The notes under the pieces: generated by a model
The model's database searches: none
What the model was told of the DNA's origin: nothing
Seen by the model: the letters and a program-made list of their open reading frames with translations, nothing else
Source of the DNA: Acidobacteriota bacterium
Lineage (GTDB): Bacteria; Acidobacteriota; Terriglobia; Terriglobales; Acidobacteriaceae
Reading direction: 5' to 3'
DNA length: 33,408 nt
Assembly (NCBI GenBank): GCA_021810625.1
Contig: JAJZIJ010000028.1
Location: 1-33,408, forward strand
Program-made: the position numbers and the translations under genes
In this document: positions 2,746 through 17,309 of the stretch, one piece after another
Numbering within the stretch: the first letter of the stretch is position 1
How the letters are laid out: the number at the start of each line of letters is the position of its first letter

Positions 2746-4848
2746 ATGATGAAAACCAGATATGCGAACAGTTACTATTGCCTTTTGCTTTTTGGGGTGG
2801 TTGCTGGAGCATGGCTGCTGCCGAATGCAAATGCCGCAACGTGCATGACCCAATCGCAAATGACAGTGGCAGCGCGAGACGCGCTGTCGAGTAGCGTCCT
2901 CGCTATGGTTGGCGAGGTGCAGCGTGGAGATGTGCAGTCGCTACGAGCGAACACAATTCCAGCGGTAGCTGCGGATTTTAGCGGGGTTGCTGCCTGGGCA
3001 GATAGTTTGAGGCCTCTGGTACAGCACGCGACGATCACCGTCGATGATCTGTATGCTCTGGACGCTTCGAGTGAACCTATAGATTCCCCACGAACAGATT
3101 TTTACTGCGGAACGCCGGTCGTGATGCTCGACCTTGCAAACTTGCCGCCGGGCAAGTTTGCGTTGGTCATTCTTCACGCCACCGGAGTCCCGAAGCCACA
3201 GCAAATTTCTTTCATCTTGTCAGAGACGCTTGAAAATCACTGGATGCTCGCCGGATTGTTCAGCAGTCCCCTGATGGAAGCAGGCCACAATGGCCTCTGG
3301 TACTGGTCGCAGGCACGCGCATACGCGCACAAGAAGATGAATTGGGATGCGTGGTTCTACGATCAGGCGGCTGCGTCGCTTCTGGAGCCGGTTGAATTTC
3401 TGTCCAGTCCCAATCTTGAAAAACTACAGCAGGAAGCGAACCAGGTGCGGCCCGATACTCTTCCCGAAACAAAACCACTGATGCTCAAAGGGAATGGCGC
3501 TACTTTTGAAATAACGGCGATGGGTGCCACAGGGGCGCTGGGAGGATTGGATATCGATGCCCACTACATTCCTGATACCGCACAGCGAACCCAGTTGCAG
3601 AACCCGTCGGCTGCGCGAAAGCAGGTACTCGACGTGATGTTGGCGTTGCTCACGCTCCATCCAGAACTTGGTGTAGCGTTCCGGGGCATCTGGGTACATG
3701 CGGATGAAGGGGCTGTCGCTGTCTTTGCCTTGGATTTGTCGATGAACGAGATTACATCTGGAACACAGTTCACGCCGTCTGCGCAAATGCAGCCCACAAC
3801 AGCAGTGACATCATACGATCCTACGCAACCGGAGCTTGAGCCGAGTCTCAATGTAGACCGCGATCCAATTCTTTCCCCGGATGTTGAAATTAAAGCGCTG
3901 GAAAATGCGAAGTTACCAGCCGTTACAGGACAGGCAGGCGAGATTAAAAAAGGGCAAGGCGGCATCTATACGCTGCATGAAGATGTAAATGAAGTTGTGT
4001 TGAACTGCACAGTGGTCAACGCAAAAGGACAATTCGTTTCCGATCTGGAACGCCGCGACTTCCGCGTGTGGGAGGACGGCGTTGCGCAGACGATAGACTC
4101 TTTTCAACTGCAAGATCTTCCGGTATCAATGGGTATTCTTGTCGATAATTCCGGCTCCATGCGCGACAAACGCGCAGCAGTCGATGCTGCGGCCTTGGAT
4201 ATGGTGAGGGCATCCAACCCTCAGGATCAGACATTTATCGTGAATTTTTCCGACAAGGCTTATCTCGATCAAGATTTCACCTCAAACATCGACGCGCTGG
4301 AGCGCGGGCTTGCACGCTTCGATGCCAGGAGTGCCACGGCGCTGTATGACGCGGTGGTCGCTTCTGCTGGCGAGCTGGCCAAACATGCGAAACTGCCGAA
4401 ACAGGTGCTGCTGATTATTACAGATGGAGAGGACAATGCCTCCAGGCTCAGTCTGGAACAGGCCGTGCGCAGTGTGCAGAGCCTGGATGGGCCTGCGGTG
4501 TATTCCATTGGGCTGCTTTTCGGGGAGGACAAAGAAGAATCGCAGCATGTGAAAAAGGCGCTGGAAACGCTGTCGCAAGAGACAGGGGGCATTGCTTACT
4601 TTCCGAAATCCTTGCAGGATGTGGATACAATCGCGGGTGAGATTGCTCGCGACATCCGTGACCAGTACATCGTCGGCTTCCATTCAACCAAGCCCGCCAT
4701 TCTTGGAGGCTACCGGACGGTGCACGTGGCAGCCAAAGCACCGAATCACGGCAAGCTAATCGTCAGGACGCGCAGAGGCTATTACCCAGGGAAGGTACAG
4801 CGGCATGAGCAGGCAATTCAAGAAGTCTCTGCGCAAGTTGGCAAGTAG
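2746..4848 (+). CDS. Secreted VWFA-related acidobacterial protein
   Basis: This 700-residue exported protein begins MMKTRYANSYYCLLLFGVVA and has a signal peptide likely cut after PNANA (about residue 30). Residues 31-400 are a long N-terminal part I do not recognise. The C-terminal 300 residues match the VWFA-related domain typical of Acidobacteria. A strand-rich lead-in (VVNAKGQFVSDLERRDFRVWEDG) is followed by a von Willebrand A domain with an intact metal-ion site, DNSGS at 467-471, and a later LLIITDGEDNAS strand. Such proteins are thought to mediate metal-dependent protein contacts outside the cytoplasm; partners are unknown. ATG 2746 is preferred over a TTG at 2713 because it starts directly at the signal peptide. 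The gene stands alone, downstream of the repeat array and convergent with rel. Confidence 0.85.
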   Translation: MMKTRYANSYYCLLLFGVVAGAWLLPNANAATCMTQSQMTVAARDALSSSVLAMVGEVQRGDVQSLRANTIPAVAADFSGVAAWADSLRPLVQHATITVDDLYALDASSEPIDSPRTDFYCGTPVVMLDLANLPPGKFALVILHATGVPKPQQISFILSETLENHWMLAGLFSSPLMEAGHNGLWYWSQARAYAHKKMNWDAWFYDQAAASLLEPVEFLSSPNLEKLQQEANQVRPDTLPETKPLMLKGNGATFEITAMGATGALGGLDIDAHYIPDTAQRTQLQNPSAARKQVLDVMLALLTLHPELGVAFRGIWVHADEGAVAVFALDLSMNEITSGTQFTPSAQMQPTTAVTSYDPTQPELEPSLNVDRDPILSPDVEIKALENAKLPAVTGQAGEIKKGQGGIYTLHEDVNEVVLNCTVVNAKGQFVSDLERRDFRVWEDGVAQTIDSFQLQDLPVSMGILVDNSGSMRDKRAAVDAAALDMVRASNPQDQTFIVNFSDKAYLDQDFTSNIDALERGLARFDARSATALYDAVVASAGELAKHAKLPKQVLLIITDGEDNASRLSLEQAVRSVQSLDGPAVYSIGLLFGEDKEESQHVKKALETLSQETGGIAYFPKSLQDVDTIAGEIARDIRDQYIVGFHSTKPAILGGYRTVHVAAKAPNHGKLIVRTRRGYYPGKVQRHEQAIQEVSAQVGK

Positions 4849-13199: not shown

Positions 13200-15593
13200 T
13201 TATTTCACAATGTTGAATTGCGCCGACTGCGTGGCCTGGGAGCTGCCTCCAATATAGACGGTGTATTCAGTGCCCGGTTCAACCACGCGCTGGCTCTGCG
13301 CGTTGATAAAGGACATCTCAGGAAATCCCAACGAAAAGGTGACATGCTTCGTCTCGCCGGGGGCAAGCGTGACGCGCTGGAAGCCTTCAAGCTGACGCAC
13401 CGGCTCCTCCATGCTGGCTCCGCGAATGCGCAGATAGAGTTGCACAACCTCCGTGCCCGCGACAGCGCCCGCGTTGCGGACATCCGTGCTGGCTTCCAGC
13501 GCGGGAGCGTTGCCCTGAAGCTGCGCAACAGAAACCTGCTGCGCGCTCAGCGTGACGGGCGCGTAGTTGAATTCCGTGTAGCTCAGGCCGTGTCCAAAGG
13601 GAAAGAGCGGCGCATTGGGAACGTCAATGTAGCGCGAGAGATATTTTTCAGCGGCATTTCGCGGCGGATGCGAGAGATTGGCATCGCCTGCCGGACGTCC
13701 GGTGGGAAGCTGGCTGAGATAGAGCGGCTCCTGCCCCATGGCATAAGGAAAGCTGACGGGCAGCTTGCCGCTGGGGTTCACATCGCCGAAGAGAATGTTA
13801 GTCAGCGCAGGGCCAGCCTCGATGCCGGGAAACCACGCTTCCACAATGGCCGAAACGTGCTGCGCGGCCCAATCGAGTACCAGCGGGCGTCCGCTAAAGA
13901 CGATCAACACGACAGGCTTGCCGGTGGCGACGACGGCTTCCAGCAGCTTCTCCTGATTTCCGGGCAGGCCCAGATGCGCGCGCGACGCGGCCTCGCCGGT
14001 CATGGTCGGGCCATCCTCGCCAAGCGTGAGCAGCACCAGATCCGATTGCTTTGCGGCATCAATGGCAGCGGCAAATCCGGTCTCCGATTGCGTGAGAATC
14101 TCCGTGCCCTGCGCATAAAGCACCTTGCCGCCCGTGGCCTTCATGCGCGCCTCCAACGCAGTGCGCAGCGTGACCACATCGGCAGGATTGCCCTTGCCGC
14201 TCCAGGAGCCAAGCATCTCGCCTTGCGCGTCACCAAAGGGGCCGAGCAGCGCGATGGTATGTACCTGCGGACGGATGGGCAACAGCTTTGGTTGACCTAG
14301 GTGCGCCTGATTTTGCAGCAGTACCAGCGATTCCTCCGCAGCTTGGCGAGCCAGCGCACGCTTCTCCGGCGTGGCAACGTAGGCCGGAGCCTTGTCATCG
14401 GCGTAGGGATGCTCGAAGAGTCCGAGCGCAAATTTGACGCGCAGAATGCGGCGCACCGCCTCGTCAATGGTCGCCTCTGGCACCTGCCCATCGCGCACCA
14501 GCGCAGCCAGCCGCATGTGGTAGACATTGCCTTCCATGTCCATGTCCAGACCTGCGGAAATAGCCTTCTGGCCTGCCGTGGCGCTATCGAGCGCGATGCC
14601 GTGGTCGATCAACTCATAGACCGCGTGGTAATCGCTGACAACGAAGCCCTGAAAACCCCATTCGTTGCGTAGAATCTGCGTCAGCGTGTATGGGTCTGCG
14701 GTCGCGGGAACTCCGTTCAGGGAGTTGAAGGAACTCATCACAGTGACAGCGCCTGCGTCAATGGCGGCCTGATAGGGCGGCAGATAGACCTGGCGCAGCA
14801 TCACGTCGGACATGTCAACAGCGTTGTATTCGCGTCCAGCAGTCACCGCGCCGTAGGCGGCAAAATGCTTGACGCAGGCGGCAATGGATGTAGGGTCGCT
14901 GAGTCGGTCGCCCTGATAGCCATGCACATAGGCGCGGGCCATTGCGGAGCCAAGATATGGGTCTTCGCCTGCGCCCTCGACAACACGGCCCCAGCGGGCA
15001 TCGCGCGCGATATCCACCATCGGCGAAAATGTCCAGCGAACGCCATCCGCGCTGGCCTCCGTGGCGGCCATGCGCGCGGTCTCCTTCACCATCGCCGGAT
15101 CAAAGCTGGCGGCCAGTCCCAGTGGCACCGGAAAGACCGTGCGATCCCCGTGAATGACATCCAGGCCATAGATCAACGGAATGTGCAGGCGGCTCTGTTC
15201 GACGGCGATCTTCTGATACATGTTGGCGGTCTTGGCATCGCCGACATTCAGCAGGCTGCCCACCTCCCCGGCGGCGATCATGGTTGCGTAATTCTGCCGA
15301 TCCGTGGCTGGCCCGGTCGGCACTCCGGCAGAGTATTGCACCAGTTGGCCAATCTTCTCCTCCAGCGTCATCTTGGCCAACAGAGCGTTGACACGCGCAT
15401 TCAGGTGTTTATCCGCGAGCTGGGGGTTGGTTACAGGCATGGGATGCGTTTCTCCGTCGGGATGGTTCGCGGAATGGTTGGAATGCGCCGCTGCTGCCGC
15501 AACGCGGGAAAGGCCAGCGCGTGGAGCGACGGCGTAGAAAAGCGCCAAAGAAACGGAGGCAAAACAGACGACGCGAAGAGTACGAAAATACAT
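13200..15593 (-). CDS. bglX: Periplasmic beta-glucosidase, glycoside hydrolase family 3
   Basis: This exported beta-glucosidase hydrolyses beta-linked glucosides or short oligosaccharides. The 797-residue protein opens with a signal peptide (MYFRTLRVVCFASVSLALFY, followed by AVAPRAG). The GH3 N-terminal barrel includes IYGLDVIHGD (141-150), the substrate-binding pair K242-H243 (VKHFAAYGA) and the nucleophile D321 in VVSDYHAV. A GH3 C-terminal alpha/beta domain (GEDGPTMTGEAASRAHLGLPGNQ) and a fibronectin-III-like tail (GAVAGTEVVQLYLR) complete the BglX layout. The neighbouring Kelch lipoprotein gene is divergent, so the 207 bp between them hold both promoters. Other secreted sugar enzymes lie about 10 kb away. 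The exact substrate cannot be read from sequence. Confidence 0.95.
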   Translation of the reverse strand: MYFRTLRVVCFASVSLALFYAVAPRAGLSRVAAAAAHSNHSANHPDGETHPMPVTNPQLADKHLNARVNALLAKMTLEEKIGQLVQYSAGVPTGPATDRQNYATMIAAGEVGSLLNVGDAKTANMYQKIAVEQSRLHIPLIYGLDVIHGDRTVFPVPLGLAASFDPAMVKETARMAATEASADGVRWTFSPMVDIARDARWGRVVEGAGEDPYLGSAMARAYVHGYQGDRLSDPTSIAACVKHFAAYGAVTAGREYNAVDMSDVMLRQVYLPPYQAAIDAGAVTVMSSFNSLNGVPATADPYTLTQILRNEWGFQGFVVSDYHAVYELIDHGIALDSATAGQKAISAGLDMDMEGNVYHMRLAALVRDGQVPEATIDEAVRRILRVKFALGLFEHPYADDKAPAYVATPEKRALARQAAEESLVLLQNQAHLGQPKLLPIRPQVHTIALLGPFGDAQGEMLGSWSGKGNPADVVTLRTALEARMKATGGKVLYAQGTEILTQSETGFAAAIDAAKQSDLVLLTLGEDGPTMTGEAASRAHLGLPGNQEKLLEAVVATGKPVVLIVFSGRPLVLDWAAQHVSAIVEAWFPGIEAGPALTNILFGDVNPSGKLPVSFPYAMGQEPLYLSQLPTGRPAGDANLSHPPRNAAEKYLSRYIDVPNAPLFPFGHGLSYTEFNYAPVTLSAQQVSVAQLQGNAPALEASTDVRNAGAVAGTEVVQLYLRIRGASMEEPVRQLEGFQRVTLAPGETKHVTFSLGFPEMSFINAQSQRVVEPGTEYTVYIGGSSQATQSAQFNIVK

Positions 15594-15667: not shown

Positions 15668-15701
15668 TCAATTTGAGTTTAGTGGAAGTCTTTCAAATTG
15701 A
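15668..15701. promoter_or_regulatory. Inverted repeat between bglX and the Kelch lipoprotein gene
   Basis: tcaatttga (15668-15676) and tcaaattga (15693-15701) are exact inverses 16 nt apart. A second overlapping pair, tagtgg (15680-15685) and ccacta (15703-15708), could form an alternative hairpin. The site lies in the divergent promoter region, so it could be an operator for either gene. Confidence 0.45.
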
Positions 15702-15730
15702 CCCACTATCGGCATTTTTCAAAATTATTA

Positions 15731-15761
15731 TTGACGTAAGTTCGGGGGGGGGGGGTACAAT
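15731..15761 (+). promoter_or_regulatory. Promoter with a 12-G tract in the spacer (candidate phase-variable)
   Basis: A -35-like TTGACG (15731-15736) and a -10-like TACAAT (15756-15761) are separated by 19 nt, of which the last 12 are an uninterrupted G run (15744-15755). Slippage of the run would change the spacer: 10 G would give the optimal 17 nt. The downstream GTG at 15801 has AAAGGTG as ribosome site, giving a leader of about 33 nt. Confidence 0.65.
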
Positions 15762-15800
15762 AAATCCGTCTTTACTTCCAAGTATCTGAAAGGTGCCTAA

Positions 15801-17309
15801 GTGCCCACTTCCCACCGTTTTCCCAAAGTCTTGCTGCGCGCGCTGTTGAGCCTGCCTACGATCTTCGCTCTCTCGATTCCGCTGCTCCTCACCGCCTGTG
15901 GCGGGAGTGCAAGCAGCACGCCCAGCGCCGCCAAGCAATGGACATGGATGAGCGGCAGCAGCACGCTGGGGTCAAAGGGGGGTCAACCCGGTGTCTACGG
16001 AACGCTGGGCACCGCCGCTGCCAGCAATGTTCCCGGAGGCAGGCGGGGTTCTGTCAGTTGGACAGACGGCAGCGGCAACCTCTGGCTCTTCGGAGGCTGT
16101 GGCGACGATTCGACCGACACGCTGGGCGATCTCAACGACCTCTGGGAGTTCAATCCCACGACCAAGGAATGGATATGGATGAGCGGCAGCAGCACGCTGG
16201 GCGCAAACGGTGGTCAATTTGGTGTCTACGGCACGCTGGGCACCGCCGCTGCCAGCAATGTTCCCGGAGGCCGGATACATTCTGTCAGTTGGACAGACAG
16301 CAGCGGCAACCTCTGGCTCTTTGGAGGATCTGGCGTTATTTCGTCTGGGACGGAGAACGACCTCAACGACCTGTGGGAGTTCAATCCCACGACCAAAGAA
16401 TGGATGTGGGTAAGTGGAAGCAGCCCTGTGGGCGCAAAAGGTGCTCCATCTGGTGTTTACGGCACGCTGGGCACCGCCGCTGCCAGCAACGTTCCCGGAG
16501 GCCGACAGAATTCTGTCAGTTGGACAGACGGCAGCGGCAACCTCTGGCTCTTTGGAGGCTACGGCAATGATTCGACCGGAACGTTCGGTAGCCTCAACGA
16601 TCTGTGGGAGTTCAATCCTTCAACCAAGATGTGGACATGGATGAGCGGCAGCAGCACTGTGCCGAGTGCAAACGGTGGTCAACCCGGTGTCTACGGTACT
16701 CTCGGCACGGCCTCTGCCAGCAACGTCCCCGGAGGCCGGGCAGGTTCTGTCAGTTGGACAGACCGCAGCGGCAACCTCTGGCTCTTCGGAGGCGGTGGTT
16801 TTGATTCAACCGACGAGGGTGGCTGGCTCAACGACCTCTGGAACTTTAATCCTTCAACCAAGATGTGGACATGGGTGAGCGGCAGCAGCAGGCTGGGTGT
16901 ATTCGGTCAACCCGGTGTTTACGGCACGCTGGGCACACCGAGTCCCAGCAATGTTCCCGGAGGCCGACAGAATTCTGTCAGTTGGAGGGATAGCAGCGGC
17001 AACCTCTGGCTCTTCGGAGGTCAGGGTTTTGATTCGACCGGAACGCTCGGTAGCCTCAACGATCTGTGGGAGTTCAATCCTTCAACCAAGATGTGGACAT
17101 GGGTGAGCGGCAGCAGCACTGCGAGTGAGAATGGTAATGGTGTCTACGGTACTCTCGGCACGGCCTCTGCCAGCAACGTCCCCGGAAGCCGGACATATTC
17201 TGTCAGTTGGATCGACGGCAGCGGCAACCTCTGGCTCTTTGGAGGCTACGGCGCTGACTCGACCAGAATGCAGGGCAATCTCAACGACCTCTGGCGCTAC
17301 CAGCCATAG
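15801..17309 (+). CDS. Kelch-repeat (galactose-oxidase-like propeller) lipoprotein
   Basis: This 502-residue exported lipoprotein starts at GTG (MPTSHRFPKVLLRALLSLPT) and has a hydrophobic stretch ending in a lipobox LLTAC. Residue C33 is followed by GGSASSTPSAAK, so it is probably surface- or periplasm-anchored. The rest is six near-identical 77-residue units. Their DNA starts lie at 15939, 16170, 16401, 16632, 16866 and 17094, a period of 231 bp with one 234 and one 228. Each unit reads W-x-W-[MV]SGSS, then YGTLGT, NVPGGR, SVSWTDGSGNLWLFGG and LNDLWEFNP, a Kelch blade with an insertion. The last unit stops at LNDLWRYQP, so the first WTWMSGSS strand can close the ring. Ligand unknown. Confidence 0.88.
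   Translation: MPTSHRFPKVLLRALLSLPTIFALSIPLLLTACGGSASSTPSAAKQWTWMSGSSTLGSKGGQPGVYGTLGTAAASNVPGGRRGSVSWTDGSGNLWLFGGCGDDSTDTLGDLNDLWEFNPTTKEWIWMSGSSTLGANGGQFGVYGTLGTAAASNVPGGRIHSVSWTDSSGNLWLFGGSGVISSGTENDLNDLWEFNPTTKEWMWVSGSSPVGAKGAPSGVYGTLGTAAASNVPGGRQNSVSWTDGSGNLWLFGGYGNDSTGTFGSLNDLWEFNPSTKMWTWMSGSSTVPSANGGQPGVYGTLGTASASNVPGGRAGSVSWTDRSGNLWLFGGGGFDSTDEGGWLNDLWNFNPSTKMWTWVSGSSRLGVFGQPGVYGTLGTPSPSNVPGGRQNSVSWRDSSGNLWLFGGQGFDSTGTLGSLNDLWEFNPSTKMWTWVSGSSTASENGNGVYGTLGTASASNVPGSRTYSVSWIDGSGNLWLFGGYGADSTRMQGNLNDLWRYQP
15939..17309 (+). repeat. Six tandem 231-bp coding repeats
   Basis: In-frame tandem units of 231, 231, 231, 234 and 228 bp plus a shorter last unit share long identical stretches (for example gacggcagcggcaacctctg). 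Such similarity allows unequal recombination, so copy number could vary between strains. Length changes preserve the frame. Confidence 0.9.

What the first reader, a model, noticed from the sequence alone, without database searches (positions are those of the whole stretch)
15731..15801. Poly-G tract in a promoter spacer: candidate phase-variable Kelch lipoprotein
TTGACG and TACAAT flank a run of 12 G, giving a 19-nt spacer. In Neisseria porA a poly-G run at the same place makes transcription switch as its length changes. Here the controlled gene is a repeat-rich, lipobox-bearing, probably surface-exposed propeller protein, the kind of product that is often phase-variable. I do not know of such a switch described in Acidobacteria. 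At 10 or 11 G the spacer would be 17-18 nt and the promoter stronger.
Basis: partly seen in the sequence, partly recalled or inferred. Interest (0 to 1): 0.78.

Follow-up and report, generated by a model that had tools for sequence, protein, structure and literature searches.

The report
Slippery poly-G promoter for surface lipoproteins
A run of twelve G sits between the two halves of a bacterial promoter, a layout that in some pathogens makes surface genes flicker on and off; the same layout recurs at sister genes in this genome and in many other bacteria, though switching itself has not been watched.

Summary
It is not chance. The genome (2.45 Mb) has 7 runs of 9 or more G; all three of 12 or more follow a -35-like box. 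Two of these (12 G here, 13 G on C29) drive paralogous Kelch lipoproteins from one duplicated promoter block whose only gap between the two is the tract. Three more copies have a 9-G run beside an assembly gap, or interrupted runs. In 399 genomes of the class the layout occurs 36 times in 25 genomes, backwards control 0, poly-C version 9. In a genome of another family, four near-identical promoter cassettes carry 9, 11, 11 and 13 G. A capped scan of named genomes shows the layout in many phyla, with signal-peptide-like downstream ORFs in 55 of 89 against 41 of 364 background ORFs; in the class set this enrichment was not significant. Best reading: a porA/tp0126-type slippage switch, here outside the known pathogens and in multigene, partly portable form. 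Instability of this very tract and its effect on expression are inferred. The mechanism is known; this setting was not found in my paper searches.

The parts
15731..15736 (+). -35 box TTGACG
   Evidence: lies in the block conserved with paralogues
15744..15755 (+). poly-G tract, 12 G, abutting the -10
   Evidence: 13 G in the C29 paralogue
15737..15755 (+). 19-nt promoter spacer (TAAGTTC + G12)
15756..15761 (+). -10 box TACAAT
   Evidence: identical in C29, C30, C11
15721..15730 (+). A/T-rich stretch just upstream of the -35, where conservation with paralogues begins
15788..15795 (+). likely ribosome-binding site GAAAGGTG
   Evidence: similar in paralogues
15801..17309 (+). Kelch-repeat lipoprotein, 502 aa, six repeat units by eye
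   Evidence: AlphaFold2 model pTM 0.79, mean pLDDT 77.1; Kelch domains as best folds
15888..15899 (+). lipobox L-T-A-C of the signal peptide (Cys33)
   Evidence: same LTAC motif in 6 of 7 full-length paralogues

Best explanation
The site is a sigma-70-type promoter whose spacer holds a hypermutable G run. Slipped-strand mispairing during replication adds or removes G, which changes the -35/-10 distance in 1-bp steps and so sets transcription of the Kelch lipoprotein gene to high, low or off in different cells. In this genome the same promoter block, from about 10 nt upstream of the -35 into the signal-peptide coding region, was duplicated with a Kelch gene family, so several lipoproteins would vary independently. 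Shown: the layout, the family, the differing tract lengths between copies, the recurrence in other genomes. Inferred: slippage in the living clone, the effect on transcription, surface exposure, and the benefit (avoiding phage, predators or neighbours, or varying what is bound).
For: Layout exact and improbable. Between C18 and C29 the -35 block (19 of 23) and the -10-to-RBS stretch (41 of 45) match position by position without gaps and the only length change is 12 against 13 G, while sequence 40-100 nt upstream is at chance (13 of 60) and the nearer upstream stretch is low (13 of 36). In the class, 36 matches in 25 of 399 genomes against 0 for the backwards pattern; poly-C 9 in 9 genomes, its control 1. 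Genome G061 has four copies of one promoter cassette with 11, 11, 9 (interrupted) and 13 G and G146 has one with 11; copies with 11 and 13 G have identical flanks over 113 nt. Of 15 homologous promoter pairs outside that cassette (the C18/C29 pair included) 11 differ in run length, 10 of them by one. In the named-genome scan the free -10 positions lean to TATAAT (T 59, A 67, A 68 of 118), the run directly abuts the -10 in 101 of 118 (0-2 nt allowed), spacers of 16-20 nt are not flat (p 7e-8), and downstream ORFs are signal-peptide-like in 55 of 89 against 41 of 364 background ORFs and 0 of 10 at ordinary promoters in the same loci. Length-dependent expression from this layout is reported for porA (PMC3639595, passages) and tp0126 (PMC7864442, passages).
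Against: No read-level or strain-level variation at 15744-15755 could be seen. In the class set the signal-peptide enrichment was not significant with either version of my crude predictor (15 of 30 against 22 of 51; 13 of 25 against 13 of 37), though the stricter version missed the window's own lipoprotein. Kelch relatives were found in 7 of 60 other genomes; in the 14 loci read no G or C run of 7 or more lay near the frame start, though for G007, G021 and one G032 gene the start lay outside the locus; so the switch is not conserved with the gene. Two of five copies of the promoter block have interrupted runs (C11, C68). Four of the 7 runs of 9 or more G are not in a complete layout: C28, C36, C51, and C30 where the gap hides the -35. 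The genome has two MutS-domain proteins, so slippage is probably not unchecked.
Confidence: 0.72

Rival explanations
1. A working promoter with a fixed G-rich spacer: the G run is kept as a structural or protein-binding element and does not act as a switch.
For: Interrupted G-rich spacers occur at C11 (13-nt tract, 20-nt spacer) and C68; total spacer stays 19-20 nt in C18, C29 and C11.
Against: Uninterrupted runs of 9-13 G recur in other promoters of the class with spacers from 14 to 25 nt, which a fixed element would not give; lengths differ between near-identical copies.
Confidence: 0.17
2. Chance or decaying sequence: a homopolymer that happened to arise in a spacer, with no regulatory role.
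For: No G/C run of 7 or more near the Kelch frame starts that could be seen in other genomes.
Against: Backwards control 0 against 36 in 399 genomes; all three runs of 12 or more G in the genome lie in this layout; promoter block conserved to the RBS.
Confidence: 0.05
3. Transcription starts from the upstream promoter-like site TTGACC-16-CAAAAT (15698-15725) and the G run lies in the 5' leader, acting on RNA or elongation.
For: One search lists that site (9 of 12 consensus matches).
Against: It lies almost wholly outside the block conserved with paralogues, which starts about 10 nt before 15731; it fits the consensus less well than TTGACG/TACAAT (10 of 12).
Confidence: 0.05

Closest known systems
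Neisseria meningitidis porA promoter (poly-G between -35 and -10)
   Same: Homopolymeric G in the spacer of a promoter for a surface protein; graded change of level reported (PMC3639595, passages seen)
   Different: Single porin gene of a pathogen; here a Kelch lipoprotein family with several copies of the promoter block; no switching measured here
Treponema pallidum tp0126 promoter (poly-G between -35 and -10, optimum 17 nt)
   Same: Same position of the tract, with length-dependent transcription reported (PMC7864442, passages seen)
   Different: Pathogen; OmpW-like protein; that paper's tprL tract runs from 7 to 11 G, against 12-13 here
Neisseria fetA and opc promoters
   Same: Named with porA as unstable homopolymers between -10 and -35 (PMC2791445, passage seen)
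   Different: PMC7864442 places the opc tract (poly-C) over the -35; products unrelated to Kelch proteins (recalled)
Kelch propellers such as YjhT (2uvk)
   Same: Kelch repeats by Pfam, weak sequence match (E 3.2e-6)
   Different: Lipid-anchored by a lipobox; enzyme residues were not tested

Membership tests
porA-type promoter-spacer simple-sequence-repeat phase variation | homopolymer lies between recognisable -35 and -10 boxes | tested here: met
porA-type promoter-spacer simple-sequence-repeat phase variation | tract length varies between cells or strains | tested here: inconclusive
   varies between paralogous and near-identical copies; no reads or strains of this species were available
porA-type promoter-spacer simple-sequence-repeat phase variation | length change alters transcription | not testable with these tools
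   needs reporter fusions
porA-type promoter-spacer simple-sequence-repeat phase variation | product is surface exposed or secreted | tested here: inconclusive
   lipobox LTAC in 6 of 7 full-length paralogues argues for export; which side of the outer membrane is unknown
Kelch-repeat beta-propeller proteins | Kelch motifs above the curated Pfam cut-off | tested here: met
   Kelch_4 107.9 bits against 21.6; 33 Kelch_4 matches in the genome; repeating strand pattern in the model and Kelch domains as best folds

The most novel reading that the evidence does not exclude
A convergent, bacteria-wide class of poly-G spacer switches (TTGACA, a few nt, 9 or more G, then the -10) controls exported proteins in many phyla, free-living soil lineages included, and in places spreads as a portable promoter-plus-leader cassette (four copies in G061, one in another genus) that makes whatever gene it precedes phase-variable.
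Probability: 0.5. Interest if true: 0.82.

Novelty: new member of a known kind. Interest (0 to 1): 0.63.

Why it matters
A 2025 review of phase variation notes an apparent restriction of multi-locus phase-variable genomes to pathogens, perhaps from database bias, and expects gaps on bacteria of places such as ocean and soil to be filled (PMC11868660, passages seen). This locus and the class survey give concrete, testable loci in lineages outside the known examples: the run lengths can be counted in deep reads, and the effect tested with simple reporter fusions. If they switch, clonal heterogeneity of surface proteins would be a general trait of environmental bacteria and not only an immune-evasion device.

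Tried and rejected
Chance homopolymer: rejected by the controls. A feature of this class only: rejected, since the capped named scan lists many phyla. A conserved switch around orthologous Kelch genes: not found; by DNA the promoter region was found only in the window's own genome among 61 searched (the one other hit, 22 nt in G012, matches inside the coding part), and no G/C run of 7 or more lies near the Kelch frame starts in 14 loci of 7 relatives (some loci overlap, and in G007, G021 and one G032 gene the start is outside the locus). Plasmid carriage of the protein: no match. The relatives of a small secreted protein in G096/G138 were not followed to a tract comparison. Signal-peptide enrichment in the class set: not significant with either predictor version. 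The peak of spacers at 19 nt cannot be read as an optimum because requiring 9-10 or more G favours longer spacers. The ten paper searches (capped listings of titles and abstract openings) listed nothing on poly-G promoter switches in Acidobacteria or on a cross-phylum survey of them; passages were read only of PMC3639595, PMC7864442, PMC2791445 and PMC11868660.

Full report
The observation. The window holds TTGACG at 15731-15736, TAAGTTC, twelve G at 15744-15755 and TACAAT at 15756-15761. The spacer is 19 nt. A likely ribosome-binding site (GAAAGGTG) and a GTG start at 15801 follow. The run is the only one of 8 or more G on either strand of the window. In the whole genome (2,449,385 bases, 74 contigs) there are seven runs of 9 or more G on either strand (lengths): 12 on C7, 12 here on C18, 13 on C29, and 9 on each of C28, C30, C36 and C51. 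All three runs of 12 or more come after a -35-like box (TTGACG, TTGACG, TTGATA). The loose pattern TTGA-N(1-14)-G7-N(0-5)-TANNNT finds these three plus one 7-G site, and its backwards control finds none. A random site sampled in the window has such flanks with p about 0.0011, so this is well beyond chance. The runs on C28, C36 and C51 are not in such a layout, and on C30 a gap hides the -35.

The gene. The 502-aa product has Kelch repeats (Kelch_4, 107.9 bits), a signal peptide ending in the lipobox LTAC followed by Gly, and six repeat units by eye. A model made from the seven own-genome paralogues (alignment) has pTM 0.79 and mean pLDDT 77.1, with residues 1-44 of low confidence, and the best folds in the PDB are Kelch domains. 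The genome holds seven full-length paralogues (C18, C30, C29, C11, C36, C40, C50; 475-515 aa, about 52-73% identical in pairwise BLASTP) and a fragment on C5; six of the seven have the LTAC lipobox.

A promoter family. Searching the own genome with the promoter region gave related promoters at C29, C30, C11 and, at a contig end, C68. C29 has 13 G between TTGATA and TACAAT, a 20-nt spacer. C11 has GAGGGGGGAAGGG, also a 20-nt spacer. C30 has a scaffold gap of ten N followed by a G-rich stretch with nine G next to TACAAT. C68 has TAGGGGGTGGGGTT and its contig ends just after. The paralogues on C36, C40 and C5 show no G run in the upstream sequence printed, and no run of 9 or more G lies on C5, C40 or C50 at all, the one on C36 being about 29 kb away. 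Conservation is sharply bounded: between C18, C29 and C11 sequence 40-100 nt before the block agrees at 9-13 of 60 positions, the 36 nt next to the block at 11-18 of 36, the block around the -35 at 19-20 of 23, and the stretch from the -10 to the RBS at 40-42 of 45, all compared without gaps. So the only length difference in the promoter block of C18 and C29 is one G in the tract. This is what a slipping tract leaves behind, but it could also be a single old change.

Beyond the Kelch genes. C7 carries TTGACG-T-G12-CA-TATCTT, a 15-nt spacer, before an ORF of about 115 aa of unknown kind. In 399 genomes of the class the pattern TTGAC-N(1-12)-G9-N(0-5)-TANNNT gave 36 matches in 25 genomes and no match of the backwards control in any; the poly-C version gave 9 in 9 genomes with one control match. 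Thirty of the 36 were read with their flanks; many of the downstream ORFs begin with a signal peptide by eye (small Cys-rich proteins, proteins that look like TonB-dependent receptors with a carboxypeptidase-regulatory domain, lipoproteins; these labels are recalled, not from a family search), but my crude predictor did not find this significant in the class set (15 of 30 against 22 of 51; 13 of 25 against 13 of 37).

Length differences between near-identical copies. In genome G061, of another family, four copies of one cassette of about 125 shared nt, and one in G146 of another genus, precede different genes (2 of 39 genomes of that family searched). The four runs in G061 are 11, 11, 9 (with a G-to-A change) and 13 G, the one in G146 is 11; the 13-G copy is identical over 113 flanking nt to the 11-G copies (118 columns, five of them masking N). 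Of 15 homologous pairs of poly-G promoters outside that cassette, C18/C29 included, 11 differ in run length, 10 of them by one.

Breadth. Titles include Clostridia, Bacilli, Coriobacteriales, Saccharibacteria, Nomurabacteria, Alphaproteobacteria, Rhodocyclaceae, Moraxella, Prevotella, Treponema, Planctomycetia, Phycisphaerales, Lentisphaerae, Opitutales, Elusimicrobia, Armatimonadetes, Chloroflexi, Zixibacteriota, Hydrogenedentota, Leptolyngbya, Streptobacillus and a Thermoanaerobaculia record; many are binned metagenome assemblies, whose labels can be wrong. No backwards control was run for that scan, but features that the pattern did not fix mark real promoters: the free -10 positions lean to TATAAT (T 59, A 67, A 68 of 118), the run directly abuts the -10 in 101 of 118 where 0-2 nt were allowed, and spacers of 16-20 nt, which the pattern allows equally, are far from flat with 39 of 118 at 19 nt. 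Downstream ORFs are signal-peptide-like in 55 of 89 against 41 of 364 background ORFs in the same loci (odds ratio 12.7, p 7e-22), and against 0 of 10 at ordinary promoters in those loci. A looser version with a non-overlapping background gave 71 of 98 against 132 of 502. In one search the background ORFs were longer (200 aa or more) than the targets (60 aa or more) and were not cleared of overlapping ORFs, so that odds ratio may be inflated; the figure (odds ratio 7.4) is the more careful one.

Mechanism. The best-supported account is a slippage switch of the porA/tp0126 type: replication slippage changes the number of G, the -35/-10 distance shifts by 1 bp per G, and transcription moves between levels. 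Passages that I read report this for porA (PMC3639595) and for tp0126 with an optimum of 17 nt (PMC7864442). At 12 G the window's spacer is 19 nt. By that optimum two G fewer would be strongest; on the other hand the poly-G promoters peak at 19 nt. That peak may reflect a shorter rise of G-run DNA (recalled, inference) or simply the length threshold of the search. I therefore leave open whether the sequenced state is high or low.

What stays unshown. No reads or strains were available, so variation at this very tract is inferred. The genome has two MutS-domain proteins, so rates may be modest. Kelch relatives in seven other genomes, one of the same genus, show no G run where their starts could be seen, so the switch was probably added to this gene family in this lineage.

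Novelty. The kind of switch is known, so this is a new member of a known kind. What seems new is the setting (a lineage outside the known pathogens), the multigene and partly portable form, and the breadth of the layout. My ten paper searches listed no report of it in Acidobacteria and no cross-phylum survey of poly-G spacers; the listings were capped, and the library is open-access and lacks most subscription papers.

Noticed in passing
L227 955-1375 (own genome C7:7954-8374): A second, unrelated promoter with 12 G (TTGACG-T-G12-CA-TATCTT, 15-nt spacer) before an ORF of about 115 aa that ends at the contig end.
   Followed up: partly
L103-L107 (G061 and G146): A promoter-plus-leader cassette of about 125 shared nt with 9-13 G, repeated before four different genes in one genome and one in another genus; its leader holds an inverted repeat GCCTCAG...CTGAGGC (seen by eye).
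   Followed up: partly
own genome C30 about 4445-4485, C68 1-60, C29 88200-88367: The draft assembly is gapped or ends at or near copies of this promoter block; the C29 copy lies just after what looks by eye like the end of an IS3-type transposase.
   Followed up: no
L111-L225: Poly-G spacer promoters across many phyla, mostly abutting the -10; some loci carry two or more related copies (L137, L171, L179, L218).
   Followed up: partly
L239-L247: Nine poly-C versions of the spacer layout in nine class genomes, a quarter as many as poly-G.
   Followed up: no
window 13200-15593 (-): A 797-aa ORF is divergent to the Kelch gene and shares its upstream region; whether the G run also affects it is unknown.
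   Followed up: no
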